From Exiguobacterium aurantiacum (GTDB lineage Bacteria > Bacillota > Bacilli > Exiguobacteriales > Exiguobacteriaceae): a DNA stretch of 64,000 bases. How positions within the stretch are numbered: position 1 is the first letter of the stretch; every line of letters begins with the position of its first letter. Shown piece by piece: positions 2,474 through 7,642 of the stretch. The translations under genes were made by a program, and so were the position numbers. The stretch is from the NCBI RefSeq assembly GCF_024362205.1, contig NZ_CP101462.1:710501-774500 (forward strand), written 5' to 3'. A model generated the notes under the pieces. It made no database searches and was not told where the DNA came from. It was given only the letters and a program-made list of their open reading frames with translations.

Positions 2474-2501
2474 ATAATAGCACATTCCCACAATTCGACA
2501 A
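2474..2501 (-). promoter_or_regulatory. Promoter of the acyltransferase gene
   Basis: On the minus strand, TTGTCG (2496-2501) is separated by 16 bases from TATTAT (2474-2479). The -10 is extended by a TGC upstream. It lies about 50 bases ahead of the acyltransferase ATG. Confidence 0.6.
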
Positions 2502-2560
2502 CGATTGCGCCTAAATCGTTATCATTTAGAAATATATATGACGATAAATAGATTCATTGG

Positions 2561-3130
2561 TTATGTCTGGAGTTGGGTATTCACTTCACACTGCTCAAAA
2601 AATCGTAAAAAGATATCGCGACCGTTCGGGGTCCCAATCGACTCAGGGTGGAACTGGACGCCGTACGTCGGGTGCGTGGGATGCTCGAGCGCCATGATGA
2701 CCCCGTCACGCGTTCGGGCCGTCACGGTGAGTTCCGTCTTCAAGACGACGAGCGAATGATATCGCATGACCTCGCACTGATTCCCGTCAAACAAGACGCT
2801 CGGTGTCGTCTCAATCACGGACGTTTTCCCATGCATGACTTGTTCGGCCCGGCCGACCGTGCCGCCAAACACTTTGGCGATGACTTGATGACCGAGACAG
2901 ACGCCGAGGATGGGGATGGTGCCGGACAAGGTGCGGACGACGTCGAGCGAGACACCGGCATCCAGCGGACTACCTGGACCCGGGGAGATGATGATGCCGG
3001 TCGGATTGAGGTCGCGGATCGCGTCGACCGTCAGTTCATCATTGCGGACGACCAATACGTCGCTGAACCGGGCGACATCTTGATATACGTTATATGTGAA
3101 CGAGTCGTAGTTGTCGATGAGTAGAATCAT
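2561..3130 (-). CDS. trpG: Anthranilate synthase component II, glutamine amidotransferase subunit
   Basis: This 189-residue class I glutamine amidotransferase releases ammonia from glutamine for TrpE. Visible features are the N-terminal ILLIDNYDSFTYN, the oxyanion region ISPGPGSP, the nucleophile loop GVCLGHQ and the late HPES motif that supplies the catalytic His-Glu. Its length matches the TrpG/PabA family. Its ATG overlaps the trpE stop by four bases (ATGA), which indicates translational coupling. In many Firmicutes one such subunit serves both anthranilate and p-aminobenzoate synthases, so a shared role (PabA) is possible. No other trp biosynthetic gene follows it. Confidence 0.92.
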   Translation of the reverse strand: MILLIDNYDSFTYNVYQDVARFSDVLVVRNDELTVDAIRDLNPTGIIISPGPGSPLDAGVSLDVVRTLSGTIPILGVCLGHQVIAKVFGGTVGRAEQVMHGKTSVIETTPSVLFDGNQCEVMRYHSLVVLKTELTVTARTRDGVIMALEHPTHPTYGVQFHPESIGTPNGRDIFLRFFEQCEVNTQLQT

Positions 3131-4458
3131 GCGAACACCTCCAAGAGTGATTTGGCTTTATGCAGCGTCTCTTCATATTCTGACACCGGGTCTGAGTCGA
3201 AGACGATACCGGCACCGGCCTGGACGTAGGCCGTGTCGCCTTGAACGACCATCGTCCGGATGGCGAGGGCGAAATCGTAGCCGCCTCGGACGTCGAGGTA
3301 GCCGACGGCCCCGGCATACACTTCACGTTTCAAAGTCTCCAGTTCGTCGATCAGTTGCATCGCCCGAATCTTCGGGGCGCCCGAGACGGTACCGGCCGGG
3401 AGACAGGCCCGCAACGCGTCAATCGGATTCAAGTCGTCGCGCAGTTCTCCTTCGACCTCGGAGACGAGGTGCATGACGTTTTTAAAGCGTTCGACTTCCA
3501 TCTGTTTCGGAATCGTGACCGAACCGACTTTGGCGACACGGCCGATATCGTTGCGACCGAGGTCGAGGAGCATCCGGTGCTCGGCGAGCTCTTTCTCGTC
3601 TTGAATGAGATCAGCGGCGTGACGCACGTCCTCTTCGACCGTCTTGCCGCGAGGGCGGGTGCCGGCGATCGGGTTCGTCGAGACACGATTGCCCTCGACA
3701 CGGACGAGACTTTCCGGGGACGCCCCGAGGACGATTGCCTCGCCGAGGTCGATATAGAACAAGTACGGGCTCGGGTTCTGTTTTCGGAGTGTCCGGTAAA
3801 AGTGGAACGGGTCGCCGGTGAACGTCGCGTCGATGCGCTGGGACAAGACGAGTTGGAACACTTCACCGGCGAGGATGGCTTCTTTCGCCTTCAAGACGCG
3901 TTCGACGAACTCATCTTTGCCGGTCAACACCCGTTCACTCGTGCGGACGACGGGTGCGAGTTCGTGTGTCTTCGCCGTCTCGAGGGCCCGTTTGACGTGG
4001 TGGAGTCGCTTCTCAACATCGTCATCCCCGGTGTCGATCACGATGACCTGTTCTTCGATGTGGTCATAGAGGACGACCGTTTCATAACGTTGGAACAAGG
4101 CGTCCGGCAAACCGCGTGTCTCGCTCGGGATGTTCGGAATCGGTTCATAGACGCGTTGCATATCATAGCCGATATAGCCGACGGCACCGCCGATGAACGG
4201 ATAAGGGGCGTCCGCTGTATCTCGCGCAACCAGTTCCGACAATAAGGCGAGCGGATCGTCCGTGTGCATCGTGCCGGACGCGTCGGTCACTTCGTTGCCA
4301 TTGGCGCGAATCGTCTCGACCGGATTGGAGGCAATAATCGAGTAACGGCCGTGCTTGCCTTCGGTGCGGCTCTCGAGCAACACTTTCCGTTCGCCTTCTA
4401 AGCGGTGAAAGATTGCCACCGGTGTTAGTTCGTCGCCGTTGATGATCAGTTGTTTCAT
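3127..4458 (-). CDS. trpE: Anthranilate synthase component I
   Basis: This 443-residue chorismate-utilising enzyme converts chorismate plus ammonia to anthranilate, the first committed step of tryptophan synthesis. The start chosen is the ATG at 4458 behind AAGGAGGTT. The open frame runs 17 codons further upstream but without a ribosome site. The N-terminal LLES motif (residues 28-31) is the tryptophan feedback-binding signature, which favours TrpE over PabB. The C-terminal chorismate-binding core is complete (NPSPYLFY, GASPESLVR, NPIAGTRPRG, LDLGRNDIGRV, LPAGTVSGAPKIRAM). Tryptophan T-box control upstream supports the call. The start codon and ribosome site overlap an opposing promoter. Confidence 0.93.
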   Translation of the reverse strand: MKQLIINGDELTPVAIFHRLEGERKVLLESRTEGKHGRYSIIASNPVETIRANGNEVTDASGTMHTDDPLALLSELVARDTADAPYPFIGGAVGYIGYDMQRVYEPIPNIPSETRGLPDALFQRYETVVLYDHIEEQVIVIDTGDDDVEKRLHHVKRALETAKTHELAPVVRTSERVLTGKDEFVERVLKAKEAILAGEVFQLVLSQRIDATFTGDPFHFYRTLRKQNPSPYLFYIDLGEAIVLGASPESLVRVEGNRVSTNPIAGTRPRGKTVEEDVRHAADLIQDEKELAEHRMLLDLGRNDIGRVAKVGSVTIPKQMEVERFKNVMHLVSEVEGELRDDLNPIDALRACLPAGTVSGAPKIRAMQLIDELETLKREVYAGAVGYLDVRGGYDFALAIRTMVVQGDTAYVQAGAGIVFDSDPVSEYEETLHKAKSLLEVFA

Positions 4459-4478
4459 ATCGATAACCTCCTTATAAT
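4450..4478 (+). promoter_or_regulatory. Promoter of the DUF3885 gene, overlapping the trpE start
   Basis: TTGTTT (4450-4455), a 17-base spacer and a perfect TATAAT (4473-4478) lie 21 bases before the DUF3885 ATG. The -35 box includes trpE start-region sequence on the other strand and the spacer contains the trpE ribosome-binding site. The -10 is ideal but the -35 matches only half of the consensus. Confidence 0.6.
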
Positions 4479-4498
4479 TTGAAAGAAAAGGGGAAACT

Positions 4499-5074
4499 AT
4501 GATGCACATCTTAAAACCGAATCAATTTTCAGGAGATGCGCTCACTGAGCACATCGAGCTAGAAGAAGAATTAAGTCCGTTTCTGAATCAATCGGACGAG
4601 TTGAACCAAGCATATTTCGATGCCGTGATACGAAAAGCGAAGGGATTGTTCGACACCTTGTTTCCACACGGTGAGGCCTTTACGCTCGTGTATCATGTTT
4701 ATGGCGATCATCCTGGCAACACCGGTATGTTCCGATTGATTCGCGACAAGTCTCTCCGCTTTCAGACGGCGGTGATTCGTTCCGAAGAAGAGGAGGAGAC
4801 GCTCAGGACGTATATCGTACCCATTGCCGATCGAGACCAGCTCCGGATAACTCGTTTGTTGGAGGCGATTTGTCACCAAGACTTTCAACCATTGAGACCA
4901 CGACTGCGTGGCTGGGCCATGTCGTATCCTGCCGTTCAGTTCATTCATCAGAAAGCAGGACATGTACTATTTGTTTATGATGACCGCGGTGCCTATATCC
5001 GCGGGACATCACCCGAACACCTCCAAGCAATTAAACAAAAAATCTCCCCGCCCCTCATGCCCGATCGGACATGA
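4499..5074 (+). CDS. DUF3885 domain protein, nested opposite the trp leader
   Basis: This is a 191-residue soluble protein of unknown function. The C-terminal stretch FVYDDRGAYIRG resembles the 'YDDRG' signature of DUF3885 proteins, and the spacing and size fit. It starts at an ATG-ATG pair after GAAAAGGGG. The gene runs opposite to trpE-trpG and lies entirely between trpE and its T-box leader, so T-box read-through RNA is antisense to all of it. Its stop codon falls inside the T-box terminator hairpin. The family call is from recall of the motif and has not been tested by a search. Confidence 0.7.
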   Translation: MMHILKPNQFSGDALTEHIELEEELSPFLNQSDELNQAYFDAVIRKAKGLFDTLFPHGEAFTLVYHVYGDHPGNTGMFRLIRDKSLRFQTAVIRSEEEEETLRTYIVPIADRDQLRITRLLEAICHQDFQPLRPRLRGWAMSYPAVQFIHQKAGHVLFVYDDRGAYIRGTSPEHLQAIKQKISPPLMPDRT

Positions 5075-5089
5075 AGGACGAGGAGATTT
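5033..5089 (-). terminator. T-box regulated intrinsic terminator
   Basis: The arms AAATCTCC and GGAGATTT close a long stem (5040-5089). A T-rich tract follows on the minus strand (A-rich at 5033-5042 on the plus strand). The stem is mutually exclusive with the antiterminator. The stop codon of the opposing DUF3885 gene (5072-5074) lies in its upper part. Confidence 0.85.
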
Positions 5090-5314
5090 CCCCGTGTTGC
5101 CACCTTCGTTGAGAGACTTCGCGTCTCCCCACTCATCGCGAACCATCATTCGCTATCCTCGGTAACGGGAGGACCCGTCAGAGCCTACGTATCGGTCTGA
5201 ACGCTCAAAAGTCCATTCACATGAGACACGTCACCGGTTCGCATCGACCACCGGCTTTCTGGAGACGTATTTTCACGCTACTCTTCTTTCTCATCGCGAG
5301 TTCATATGAAGATT
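5033..5314 (-). promoter_or_regulatory. T-box leader with UGG (tryptophan) specifier
   Basis: Read on the minus strand, the canonical elements appear in order. They are GATGAGAAAGAAGAGTA (stem I base and AG box), the GCCGGTGG...GAACCGG distal loop pair, GAATGGAC-TTTTGAG with the UGG specifier at 5213-5215, and the T-box core AAGGTGGCAACACGG (5092-5107). The bulge UGGC would pair with a tRNA ending GCCA, which suits tRNA-Trp. GAAGG of the core can pair with CCTTC downstream as the antiterminator. Uncharged tRNA-Trp should allow read-through. The first minus-strand gene reached is trpE, about 575 bases beyond the terminator. Confidence 0.92.
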
Positions 5315-5320
5315 ATCGTT

Positions 5321-5349
5321 ACTTTAACGGGATGAAGCGAGAATGTCAA
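5321..5349 (-). promoter_or_regulatory. Promoter of the Trp T-box transcript
   Basis: On the minus strand, a perfect TTGACA (5344-5349) is followed by a 17-base spacer and TAAAGT (5321-5326). Transcription would start near 5314, just before the T-box stem I. Confidence 0.75.
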
Positions 5350-5491
5350 TATCGAAACAGGTAATTGTTATGAGTGAGAAGAATAGTGATGTAGATAGGC
5401 ACATCGAAAGTCGTATAGGATGACCTCATTAAGAGGTGGGCGACTCTGCCAGACGAGTATGTTATGATGGACGCGAAAGGTAGGTACATCA

Positions 5492-5866
5492 ATGGAAACA
5501 CTTAATTTGAAACAACTTTCTGACAACCGGGCCGAGCTACAAACCAAGGGTGACCTTGACGCGATGCGTGACATCATGCACGAGGAATTTCGCTATGTCG
5601 ATTCGAGCGGGCGTCAGTTTGATAAAGAAACATTTTTAGATCAGTTCGTTGACCCGGCGTCGGTCCAGTGGATTTCGCAGGACACAGTCACATTTGACGA
5701 GACGGTTTCAGGGGAAATCGCCCTCATCCAAATATTGCTTGAAGAACGCTTCATTCTTGGTACGAATGCCTATGAGGGCCGGTTCTGGGTATTGCACGTC
5801 TATGTGAAAGAGAATGACAAGTGGCTCTGGCAAGGCGGACAAGCGACGATGATCAACGAACTATAA
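5492..5866 (+). CDS. NTF2-like (DUF4440/SnoaL-type) small protein
   Basis: This 124-residue protein has the helix-helix-strand start of the NTF2-like fold (LKQLSDNRAELQTKGDLDAMRDIMHEEFRYVDSSG), the usual 'FLDQF' segment and a closing beta-rich half ending KWLWQGGQATMI. These cone-shaped domains bind small ligands or act as isomerase-like enzymes. The exact role is unknown. AAAGGTAGG precedes the ATG. It appears to be a single-gene transcript ended by a long-loop terminator. Confidence 0.7.
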   Translation: METLNLKQLSDNRAELQTKGDLDAMRDIMHEEFRYVDSSGRQFDKETFLDQFVDPASVQWISQDTVTFDETVSGEIALIQILLEERFILGTNAYEGRFWVLHVYVKENDKWLWQGGQATMINEL

Positions 5867-5872
5867 TAGCAT

Positions 5873-5949
5873 CTCCAAATGACGATTATCTGATAAAATT
5901 AGATTTCGAATCTGATTTTGAAAGATAATTTAAATTTGGAGTTTTTTTT
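5873..5949 (+). terminator. Probable terminator of the NTF2-like gene
   Basis: CTCCAAAT (5873-5880) pairs with ATTTGGAG (5934-5941), which is followed by eight T. The loop is long but contains its own smaller inverted repeats, such as AGATTTCGAATCT. The rest of the gap up to 6061 is AT-rich with no clear gene. Confidence 0.5.
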
Positions 5950-6061
5950 GAAACTTTTTTTAAAAAAAGGTAAAAGCGTTGATTTAAATCATATACTATT
6001 TATTGAAAAGAAATATAATAAACGCTATAAAGTGCTGTTGTAGAGATAGGAGGCAACGAGA

Positions 6062-7642
6062 GTGAAAAAAATAATCATTCTCTTATGTATGTTTTGGGGT
6101 TGGAACACTTATGCATCGGCTGAAGATACTTTGATTGTTGAACGAAAAATAGGAGAGCCTCTTGTAGATGAAGAAATACTTTATGAAGGTATTGATCGTG
6201 TAATCGTATCAATTCCTGCCCCTTCTATCTCTACGAAAACGAATGTAGAACAGTTAGATGAAGTCATTGGCGTTTCGGAAGATAATGTCATCAATCGCGA
6301 AGGGGTAGTTAGTCGATATCAACCTTACATCGGTTCTTTAAACATCTCACCAGTCTGGTTGAATCATCGCGGAGAAGGTGTGACTGTCGCGATCATCGAT
6401 GATGGAATCGATGTGAATCACCCAGAGTTTCGGGGTAAAATCATTTCGCCTTACGATGCGACGAGAGATGTTTATCGAATTGTGGATAAAGGTGTACATG
6501 GAACGCATGTGGCTGGAACAATTGGTTCAACCTTTGATGACCAAGGAAACGTCGGAGTCGCTCCAAACGTTAGTTTGATGCCGATTGATGTGTTTGAAGG
6601 TGACGACTCTTCTATCTCAGATGTGTTAAAAGGAATTCATCATGCGGTTATAAACGGTGCAAGAGTTGTCAATATGAGCTTTGGTACGTATGAAAGAAAT
6701 ACGGCTCTCGAATCAGCTATTCGTGACGCAAGACGTAAAGGCCTGGTATTTGTCGGAGCAGCAGGTAACGACGATACGGATGAACGCTTCTATCCGGCGG
6801 CATACAGTGACGTCCTGGCTGTAGGAGCCGTAACCGTGGATGACCAAATTACAGACTTTACGAATTATGGCACGTATATCGATGTCGTTGCTCCCGGTGA
6901 AGATATTTATTCAACGCTACCGAACGGACGCTATGGATTTATGTCAGGCACGTCGATGGCAACACCTATTGCTTCAGGAATAGCCGCGCTACTCATCTCG
7001 AAAGAACCAAAACTATCACCTGGCATGGTATATGCAAGGTTGAAAGCAACCGCGGTTGATTTAGGAGAACCGGGCAAAGATGTGCTATATGGCTATGGCA
7101 GAGTTACAGGGAAGGCCACCAATTTCTCATTGTCTGATTTCAATCTTTTGCGAGACATCAGTCCCCCAGTCAAGCCGTCATTAGGTAAACTAACGAACAA
7201 GAGTACTGCCATTATTGGAAAATCAGAATTAGGAAGTACCGTTCAAATTTTCTATCGTGGAAAGATGTACACACAATCTGCGAACAATGGCTCATATCGA
7301 ATGAACGTATCAAAATTGAAAGTAGGCTCACAAGTGACGATTGTTGCCCGTGACAAAGCCTTCAACCCGTCCCTTCCTATTACGCGAACTGTATTTGGAG
7401 TATTCGATAAACCAAGCTTCCAGTCCGTATCGTCCACTTCGTCAATCATTCGAGGAAGTGGTAAAAAATACGCCACTGTTCAAGCATTCGTTGGAAATAA
7501 ACCGATTAGCCGTGTTGTAAGAATTAAGGGTAATGGACAGTTTTCAATTTCTATACCGAAACAACGAAAAGGAAAAGTAGTCGAGGTAAAAATGAAATCA
7601 CCACTCTACTTATCTGAGAGTTACCCCCTCGTAGTCCGATAA
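6062..7642 (+). CDS. Secreted subtilisin-family serine protease with C-terminal Ig-like region
   Basis: This 526-residue preproenzyme starts at GTG after AGGAGG. A signal peptide (about 1-20, cleavage near YASA) and a short propeptide precede the S8 domain. The catalytic triad is Asp113 (AIIDDGID), His146 (HGTHVAGT) and Ser298 (GTSMATP), with oxyanion Asn236 (AAGND). After the catalytic domain (about 95-350), residues 365-526 form two beta-rich repeats like bacterial Ig/Big modules (KPSLGKLTNKS... and KPSFQSVSSTS...), probably for cell-wall or substrate attachment. The gene is AT-richer than most of the window. A good terminator follows, so it is likely monocistronic. Substrate specificity cannot be inferred. 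Confidence 0.9.
   Translation: MKKIIILLCMFWGWNTYASAEDTLIVERKIGEPLVDEEILYEGIDRVIVSIPAPSISTKTNVEQLDEVIGVSEDNVINREGVVSRYQPYIGSLNISPVWLNHRGEGVTVAIIDDGIDVNHPEFRGKIISPYDATRDVYRIVDKGVHGTHVAGTIGSTFDDQGNVGVAPNVSLMPIDVFEGDDSSISDVLKGIHHAVINGARVVNMSFGTYERNTALESAIRDARRKGLVFVGAAGNDDTDERFYPAAYSDVLAVGAVTVDDQITDFTNYGTYIDVVAPGEDIYSTLPNGRYGFMSGTSMATPIASGIAALLISKEPKLSPGMVYARLKATAVDLGEPGKDVLYGYGRVTGKATNFSLSDFNLLRDISPPVKPSLGKLTNKSTAIIGKSELGSTVQIFYRGKMYTQSANNGSYRMNVSKLKVGSQVTIVARDKAFNPSLPITRTVFGVFDKPSFQSVSSTSSIIRGSGKKYATVQAFVGNKPISRVVRIKGNGQFSISIPKQRKGKVVEVKMKSPLYLSESYPLVVR

What the first reader, a model, noticed from the sequence alone, without database searches (positions are those of the whole stretch)
4450..5349. 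Complete gene lies antisense between a Trp T-box and the trpE gene it should control
The T-box with a UGG specifier and its promoter are on the minus strand. The first minus-strand gene after its terminator is trpE, about 575 bases away. That gap is filled by a full plus-strand DUF3885 gene with its own promoter and ribosome site. Under tryptophan starvation, read-through RNA would be antisense to the whole DUF3885 mRNA and the polymerases would collide. This resembles an excludon or noncontiguous operon driven by a tRNA-sensing riboswitch, an arrangement I do not know to be described.
Basis: partly seen in the sequence, partly recalled or inferred. Interest (0 to 1): 0.8.

Follow-up and report, generated by a model that had tools for sequence, protein, structure and literature searches.

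The report
T-box reads across an opposing gene
In some Exiguobacterium species the tRNA-sensing switch that turns on the first tryptophan-synthesis gene has a complete unrelated gene, pointing the opposite way, sitting between the switch and its target, so tryptophan shortage should send RNA polymerase backwards through that gene.

Summary
A Trp T-box (RF00230, 118 bits, UGG specifier) with promoter and terminator lies on the minus strand; an intact plus-strand DUF3885 gene fills the roughly 580 nt between its terminator and trpE. All 19 genomes held for the genus have one T-box in front of trpE. In 12 it abuts trpE; in 7, spread over three clades, the same DUF3885 gene is wedged between, antisense. 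The trp-locus DUF3885 copies form one clade, six of seven are intact, and close pairs show purifying selection. With DUF3885 present the T-box is still constrained: in 6 of 6 within-clade carrier pairs it differs less than trpE third positions (ratio 0.07-0.43), much as in 19 pairs without it (0.04-0.40). No shared trpE-strand promoter is seen in the gap. The best reading is that the T-box still drives trpEG by reading through DUF3885 on its antisense strand. DUF3885's -10 box abuts trpE's ribosome site and its stop codon lies inside the T-box terminator hairpin, so mutual interference is likely but unmeasured. Antisense riboswitches, excludons and noncontiguous operons are known, and 107 antisense T-boxes are catalogued. 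This is a new variant with an unusually clean with/without comparison.

The parts
5321..5349 (-). Promoter of the T-box/trpEG transcript: TTGACA, 17 nt, TAAAGT
   Evidence: TTGACA-17-TA[AC]AGT in 19 of 19 genus genomes, TAAAGT in 18
5071..5303 (-). Trp T-box leader (RF00230), specifier UGG at 5215-5213, tRNA-acceptor bulge UGGC at 5102-5099
   Evidence: (118 bits), sequence; 19 of 19 genus genomes over gathering score. Naming of specifier and bulge is recalled T-box anatomy.
5037..5086 (-). T-box intrinsic terminator: 20-pair stem 5086-5043 plus U6 5042-5037
   Evidence: hairpin dG -35.8 kcal/mol
4499..5074 (+). DUF3885 gene (191 aa; likely start 4502, 190 aa), antisense to the T-box read-through RNA; last codons and stop lie inside the T-box terminator
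   Evidence: dN/dS 0.12-0.20 in the four close pairs
4450..4478 (+). Predicted DUF3885 promoter: TTGTTT, 17 nt, TATAAT (-10 at 4473-4478), lying over the trpE start
   Evidence: exact TATAAT at this place in 6 of 7 DUF3885-bearing genomes (AATAAT in the 7th), 0 of 12 others, though 3 of those 12 have TAAAAT there; the -35 is weak (3 of 6) and is trpE coding sequence
4487..4493 (+). DUF3885 ribosome-binding site AAAGGGG
   Evidence: present in 7 of 7 DUF3885-bearing genomes, 0 of 12 others
4467..4473 (-). trpE ribosome-binding site AAGGAGG, abutting and sharing one base with the DUF3885 -10 box
3127..4458 (-). trpE, anthranilate synthase component I
   Evidence: TIGR00564 543.7 bits, cut-off 517.7; PF00425 and PF04715
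2561..3130 (-). trpG, anthranilate synthase glutamine amidotransferase subunit (by family it could also serve aminodeoxychorismate synthase)
   Evidence: TIGR00566 181.1 bits, cut-off 121.05; PF00117

Best explanation
The T-box at 5303-5071 is the tryptophan switch of trpEG, inherited from an arrangement in which it directly preceded trpE. A DUF3885 gene of one lineage entered between the T-box terminator and trpE, antisense to trpEG, and has been kept or lost by lineage. When tRNA-Trp is uncharged, the T-box antiterminates. RNA polymerase then crosses the whole DUF3885 gene on its antisense strand and its promoter before reaching trpE, giving a long leader that is untranslated and antisense to DUF3885. 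When tRNA-Trp is charged, transcription stops at 5037 and DUF3885 is free to be expressed. Supported by sequence: the anatomy, conservation of the T-box with DUF3885 in place, lack of any shared alternative trpE promoter, and selection on DUF3885. Inferred: read-through RNA in vivo, the tRNA response, and reduced DUF3885 expression by occlusion, collision or RNase III cleavage.
For: 19 of 19 genus genomes have a T-box over gathering score upstream of trpE on its strand. In 12 the T-box core is 80-89 nt before the trpE ATG, in 7 it is 615-652 nt with DUF3885 between. A named record, L028 (Exiguobacterium sp. SL-9), has the same layout: DUF3885 at 3001-3573 plus, T-box at 3573-3794 minus, trpE start at 2959 minus. 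In 11 of 11 sister-genus loci examined (of 19 sister genomes) T-boxes sit directly before trpE, so the T-box-trpE link is probably the older state. In G000 the next best trpE matches are only 42% and 29% identical, so there is no second trpE-like copy of high score. T-box constraint with DUF3885 present: in 6 of 6 within-clade pairs of carriers the T-box differs less than trpE third positions, ratio 0.07-0.43, Fisher p 4e-5 or less; 19 non-carrier pairs give 0.04-0.40. The clearest pair is G012/G016, sisters on rpoB (100/99), both carriers: 3 of 266 T-box sites against 70 of 443 third positions (p 3e-12), with DUF3885 dS 0.25, so the block is not a recent transfer. T-box scores are alike in carriers (114.7-123.2 bits) and non-carriers (111.3-124.4). 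Promoter TTGACA-17-TA[AC]AGT in 19 of 19; between T-box and trpE 4 of 7 carriers show one 9-of-12 promoter-like site each, all at different places. trp-locus DUF3885 is one clade, 100/99, with dN/dS 0.12-0.20 in the four close pairs. In G010 the DUF3885 gene is broken yet T-box (123.2 bits) and trpE are intact, so trpE control does not need the DUF3885 protein.
Against: No transcript data. Rho is present in the genome and would be expected to attack roughly 580 nt of untranslated RNA. Promoter scans test only sigma-70-like consensus, so another trpE promoter cannot be excluded; 4 sites in the seven gaps is somewhat more than the roughly 2 that I estimate from the shuffles. The window's own genome G000 has the least constrained T-box of the carriers in its clade: ratios 0.35-0.43 with carriers and 0.30-0.49 with non-carriers, with 10-13 gapped columns, from recombination or relaxed selection. 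DUF3885 occurrence is not clustered on the rpoB tree (6 changes; 357 of 500 shuffles need as few), as expected of a dispensable passenger. DUF3885 has 60-64% third-position differences between clades against 39-42% for trpE in the same three pairs, so single vertical inheritance is not proven.
Confidence: 0.8

Rival explanations
1. Tolerated passenger: read-through does serve trpEG, but DUF3885 is a dispensable gene that happened to land there. Its antisense transcription has no regulatory role and is simply put up with.
For: Presence in 7 of 19 genomes, patchy on the rpoB tree; one copy broken (G010); none of 20 other DUF3885 loci in the family has a T-box within 1.5 kb; a published parallel, transposase genes beside T-boxes (PMC9943018).
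Against: Between-clade synonymous sites of DUF3885 are saturated or nearly so, so it is not a newcomer; close pairs show purifying selection; it is in this one place and orientation in 7 of 7 carriers, and the interlocked -10/SD and stop/terminator are found in three clades.
Confidence: 0.45
2. trpE has its own promoter inside the gap in these genomes. The T-box then makes only a short RNA, or an antisense RNA against DUF3885, and no longer controls trpE.
For: 4 of 7 carriers have one 9-of-12 promoter-like site in the gap, G000's at 261 nt before trpE; trpE keeps a strong SD.
Against: The four sites are at four different places; T-box and promoter are about as well kept as in the 12 genomes where the T-box abuts trpE.
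Confidence: 0.08
3. Antisense-acting T-box: tryptophan-dependent control of DUF3885 itself by antisense transcription is also selected, so that DUF3885 and trpEG form a true reciprocal switch.
For: Anatomy matches the antisense-acting riboswitches of ubiGmccBA and aspocR as described in PMC7154746; the DUF3885 -10 box abuts the trpE SD and no plus-strand terminator-like site was found from 2500 to 7500, so the two units overlap completely.
Against: I found no link of DUF3885 to tryptophan (two papers name the family, both in lists); the arrangement is absent from 12 of 19 genomes; no expression data.
Confidence: 0.35

Closest known systems
Canonical Trp T-boxes of Exiguobacterium trpEG and trpDCFBA (described for E. 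chiriqhucha N139, PMC5399880, passages seen)
   Same: Split trp genes; one T-box before trpEG, tandem T-boxes before the rest (here C1:299720-300224, followed by an ORF I read as trpD by eye and by trpC, PF00218)
   Different: The passages seen describe no gene between T-box and trpE
Antisense-acting riboswitches (S-box at ubiGmccBA of C. acetobutylicum; B12 riboswitch/aspocR of Listeria; survey PMC9943018, of which I saw the abstract, passages and sections 13, 21 and 23)
   Same: A riboswitch downstream of and antisense to a gene, with read-through RNA covering it
   Different: In those two cases the antisense RNA is described as the product that matters; here the same RNA continues into trpEG, the target in relatives. 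The survey's supplementary list of antisense T-boxes could not be opened.
Excludon (as reviewed in PMC7154746, passages seen)
   Same: Long 5' leader of one gene fully antisense to a divergent neighbour
   Different: Here switched by a T-box terminator; reciprocal expression not shown
Noncontiguous operon (S. aureus menE-menC-MW1733-ytkD-MW1731, as reviewed in PMC7154746)
   Same: An opposing gene lies wholly inside the transcribed unit
   Different: The opposing gene lies between a regulatory leader and the first gene, not between two genes of the operon

Membership tests
T-box leader (RF00230), transcription-terminating type | Covariance model match over the curated score | tested here: met
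   118 bits against 93; 19 of 19 genus genomes
T-box leader (RF00230), transcription-terminating type | Specifier codon for tryptophan | tested here: met
   GUGAAUGGAC aligned, UGG at minus 5215-5213; GAATGG followed by A or G and C in the 7 carriers aligned; which bases are the specifier is recalled
T-box leader (RF00230), transcription-terminating type | Terminator stem with U-tract, plus an alternative antiterminator sequence | tested here: met
   20-pair stem plus U6; the model's antiterminator region is aligned; lone folds give -35.8 (terminator) and -9.5 kcal/mol (antiterminator stretch) in G000. The competition itself is not tested.
T-box leader (RF00230), transcription-terminating type | Antitermination by uncharged cognate tRNA | not testable with these tools
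   needs experiment
Excludon | Long leader of one gene antisense to a divergent neighbour's whole gene | tested here: inconclusive
   The geometry fits: promoter 5349-5321, DUF3885 4499-5074, trpE 4458; the transcript itself is inferred
Excludon | Inverse expression of the two units | not testable with these tools
   no transcriptome available
Noncontiguous operon | Opposing gene between two protein genes of one operon | tested here: not met
   Only the T-box leader lies upstream of DUF3885; the next likely gene beyond it, the DUF4440 gene at 5492-5866, is on the plus strand
Antisense-acting riboswitch | Riboswitch at the 3' end of, and antisense to, a gene | tested here: met
Antisense-acting riboswitch | Ligand-dependent change of the antisense-covered gene | not testable with these tools
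   needs experiment

The most novel reading that the evidence does not exclude
A T-box works as a two-way switch: tRNA-Trp charging decides between anthranilate synthase (trpEG) and the opposing DUF3885 protein. Polymerase from the T-box clears the DUF3885 promoter and its RNA masks the DUF3885 mRNA, while DUF3885 transcription, which runs into the T-box terminator, damps leakage into trpEG.
Probability: 0.35. Interest if true: 0.65.

Novelty: new variant of a known kind. Interest (0 to 1): 0.47.

Why it matters
Nature has supplied both versions of the same T-box-trpE unit, with and without an opposing gene, in closely related species. This makes the effect of transcribing through an antisense gene on a tRNA-sensing switch directly testable. 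It also warns against assigning a T-box to the nearest gene or calling it orphaned: the real target may lie behind a whole opposing gene.

Tried and rejected
Rejected: (1) a minus-strand gene in the gap. The 130-aa minus ORF (4571-4963) has no Pfam match at E 0.1, no SD that I can see before its ATG, and the same frame length in only 2 of 7 carriers. (2) A misassembly: 7 genomes and the named record L028 share the arrangement; L028 and G015 may be the same organism, since the first 60 nt of trpE are identical. (3) Vestigial T-box. (4) DUF3885 as a general T-box partner: 0 of 20 other DUF3885 loci in the family carry a T-box over gathering score within 1.5 kb. Three genus genomes (G002, G012, G013) have another DUF3885 elsewhere.

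Led nowhere: structure of DUF3885 (AlphaFold with 2 sequences, mean pLDDT 45.8; too poor for a fold search, none run); solved-structure search (three matches up to E 1, best E 0.01 to a ribosomal protein); PADLOC (no match to E 1) and NCBIfam (no match to E 0.01). The idea that DUF3885 is an immunity protein: I listed neighbours for 13 of the 19 other DUF3885 loci of the tree set; in 2 (L083, L084) a small ORF precedes DUF3885, and the L083 one has a weak SAR2788 putative-toxin match (E 2.3e-6, 27.5 bits, under the 50-bit cut-off; no Pfam match). One S. aureus table lists DUF3885 and SAR2788 rows side by side. But a SAR2788 match over cut-off occurs in 1 of 19 genus genomes (G012, not at the trp locus), with weak ones in G001 and G009, so this stays a lead only. 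One search's terminator script failed for 5 of 19 genomes, because it took a U-run in the loop as the tail; only the other 14 are usable.

Rows left out: G010 (broken gene) from dN/dS and the DUF3885 tree; the split G032 gene (L080, L086) from the tree; L069 entered the tree as a 128-aa piece. Several distant pairs gave no computable dS. Sister-genus T-boxes were examined in 11 of 19 genomes (locus cap). One search compared 14 chosen pairs; one search replaced it with all 55 within-clade pairs.
Full report
Observation. The minus strand carries a full T-box leader at 5303-5071 (RF00230, 118 bits, gathering 93) with a UGG specifier (5215-5213), a TTGACA-17-TAAAGT promoter (5349-5321) and a 20-pair terminator with U6 (5086-5037). 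The next likely minus-strand gene is trpE (ATG 4458; TIGR00564 543.7 bits), followed by trpG. Between them lies a complete plus-strand DUF3885 gene (4499-5074; PF13021 80.6 bits). The gap from U-tract to trpE is about 578 nt. In the same genome 19 T-boxes are found. Of the other 18, 17 have a long sense ORF starting no later than 57 nt after the T-box match and one is the upstream half of a tandem pair. So this T-box is the exception.

Comparison. DUF3885 like the window's is found in 7 of 19 genus genomes, each time directly upstream of trpE and antisense to it. All 19 genus genomes have a T-box over gathering score upstream of trpE. In 12 its core lies 80-89 nt before the ATG; in the 7 it lies 615-652 nt before it. 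The named record L028, Exiguobacterium sp. SL-9, has the same T-box/DUF3885/trpE layout; that the window is Exiguobacterium is inferred from this. In the sister genus, 11 of 11 loci examined (of 19 genomes) have two T-boxes directly before trpE. The T-box-trpE link is therefore probably the older state and DUF3885 the later entrant. On an rpoB-locus tree the DUF3885 carriers need 6 changes and fall in all three clades, no more clustered than shuffled labels; the trpE tree needs 5. The trp-locus DUF3885 proteins (6 intact ones) form one clade (100/99) against 19 other DUF3885 proteins of the family. The simplest account is one entry at this locus with later losses, or exchange of the locus between species. 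The two cannot be told apart here: between clades DUF3885 has 60-64% third-position differences against 39-42% for trpE in the same three pairs, and G000-G015 are closer in DUF3885 (dS 0.30) than in trpE (dS 0.74).

Is the T-box still the trpE switch where DUF3885 is present? Over all 55 within-clade pairs, the ratio of T-box differences to trpE third-position differences is 0.07-0.43 in 6 carrier pairs, 0.03-0.49 in 30 mixed pairs and 0.04-0.40 in 19 non-carrier pairs, each below 1 (largest p 2.6e-4). The pairs share ancestry and are not independent. The clearest is G012/G016, sister genomes that both carry DUF3885: 3 of 266 T-box sites against 70 of 443 third positions (p 3e-12), while the DUF3885 gene between has dS 0.25. 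The window's genome G000 is the weakest case (0.30-0.49 in all its pairs, 10-13 gapped columns), from recombination or relaxed selection; its T-box still scores 118 bits. The T-box promoter is kept in 19 of 19. Between T-box and trpE, 4 of 7 carriers show one 9-of-12 promoter-like site each, at four different places;'s shuffles I estimate about 2 by chance. trpE has no second high-scoring copy (in G000 the next are 42% and 29% identical). In G010 the DUF3885 frame is broken (150 aa, then out of frame) while T-box and trpE are intact. These facts favour read-through across DUF3885 as the route to trpE.

Is DUF3885 a real gene? The four close pairs give dN/dS 0.12-0.20 (G010 left out). All 7 carry AAAGGGG before the start and 6 of 7 an exact TATAAT at the same place (AATAAT in G015); none of the 12 genomes without DUF3885 has either, though 3 of those 12 have TAAAAT at that place. 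The -35 (TTGTTN) is weak and is trpE coding sequence in all 19, so it is not independent evidence.

Interlock. The DUF3885 -10 (4473-4478) abuts the trpE SD (4467-4473), sharing one base. In 6 of 6 intact copies the DUF3885 frame runs through the T-box U-tract and 3' stem and stops inside the terminator hairpin. No plus-strand terminator-like site was found in 2500-7500, so DUF3885 transcription may run into the T-box (inference). Polymerase coming from the T-box must cross the DUF3885 gene and then its promoter; polymerase sitting at that promoter would stand in the way of trpE. Interference both ways is thus built into the layout, but its size is unknown. Rho is present and could cut the untranslated read-through RNA; that is a real weakness of the model.

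What is known. Passages of PMC5399880 describe, in E. chiriqhucha, trpEG with one T-box and trpDCFBA with two in tandem; the passages seen name no intervening gene. PMC9943018 (abstract, passages, sections 13, 21 and 23) counts 107 antisense against 15,851 sense T-boxes and shows a transposase gene beside a T-box that in relatives precedes a tryptophan-transporter gene; its supplementary list could not be opened. PMC7154746 (passages) reviews excludons, noncontiguous operons and riboswitch-driven antisense RNA. PMC9239193 (passages) lists 83 noncontiguous units in Dickeya and, in the passages seen, names T-boxes only as one cause of conditional termination. Five searches listed no T-box shown to drive its target across an opposing gene: T-box, antisense, noncontiguous operon (20 of 1,223 papers listed); Exiguobacterium, T-box, trpE (1 of 1); riboswitch, noncontiguous operon (7 of 7); T-box riboswitch, antisense transcript, divergent gene (20 of 148); T-box riboswitch, transcriptional interference (10 of 13). 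For most of these papers I saw only the listing.

Verdict. The regulatory meaning for DUF3885 is open. It is a new variant of a known kind. DUF3885's own function is unknown; an immunity-protein role is only a lead.

Noticed in passing
5043-5074 (plus), 5086-5043 (minus): The C-terminal codons and stop of DUF3885 are encoded by the complement of the T-box terminator hairpin; one stretch of DNA serves as protein-coding sequence and as terminator in 6 of 6 intact copies.
   Followed up: partly
L083 and L084, 1135-1470 and DUF3885 at 1492-2115: In two sister-genus genomes DUF3885 follows a small ORF; the L083 one has a weak SAR2788 putative-toxin match, hinting that some DUF3885 proteins are immunity proteins.
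   Followed up: partly
L001/L005 (own genome C1:299720-300224): Tandem T-boxes precede an ORF that I read as trpD, while in the sister genus tandem T-boxes precede trpE; the trp operon seems to have split in this genus, leaving trpEG with a single T-box.
   Followed up: partly
L037, L038, L040 upstream of trpE: The three DUF3885-less genomes of one clade (G018, G004, G005) have TAAAAT where DUF3885 carriers have TATAAT, and share the trpE leader sequence of the carrier G008; possibly scars of DUF3885 loss.
   Followed up: no
window 5303-5037 (T-box of G000): The window's T-box is the most diverged of its clade, and its terminator and antiterminator letters look more like those of another clade (G018), as if it had been exchanged by recombination.
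   Followed up: partly
DNA upstream of the T-box promoter in the seven DUF3885 carriers: Sequence beyond the T-box promoter differs widely between carriers of different clades, as if the T-box-trpEG unit had changed neighbours.
   Followed up: no
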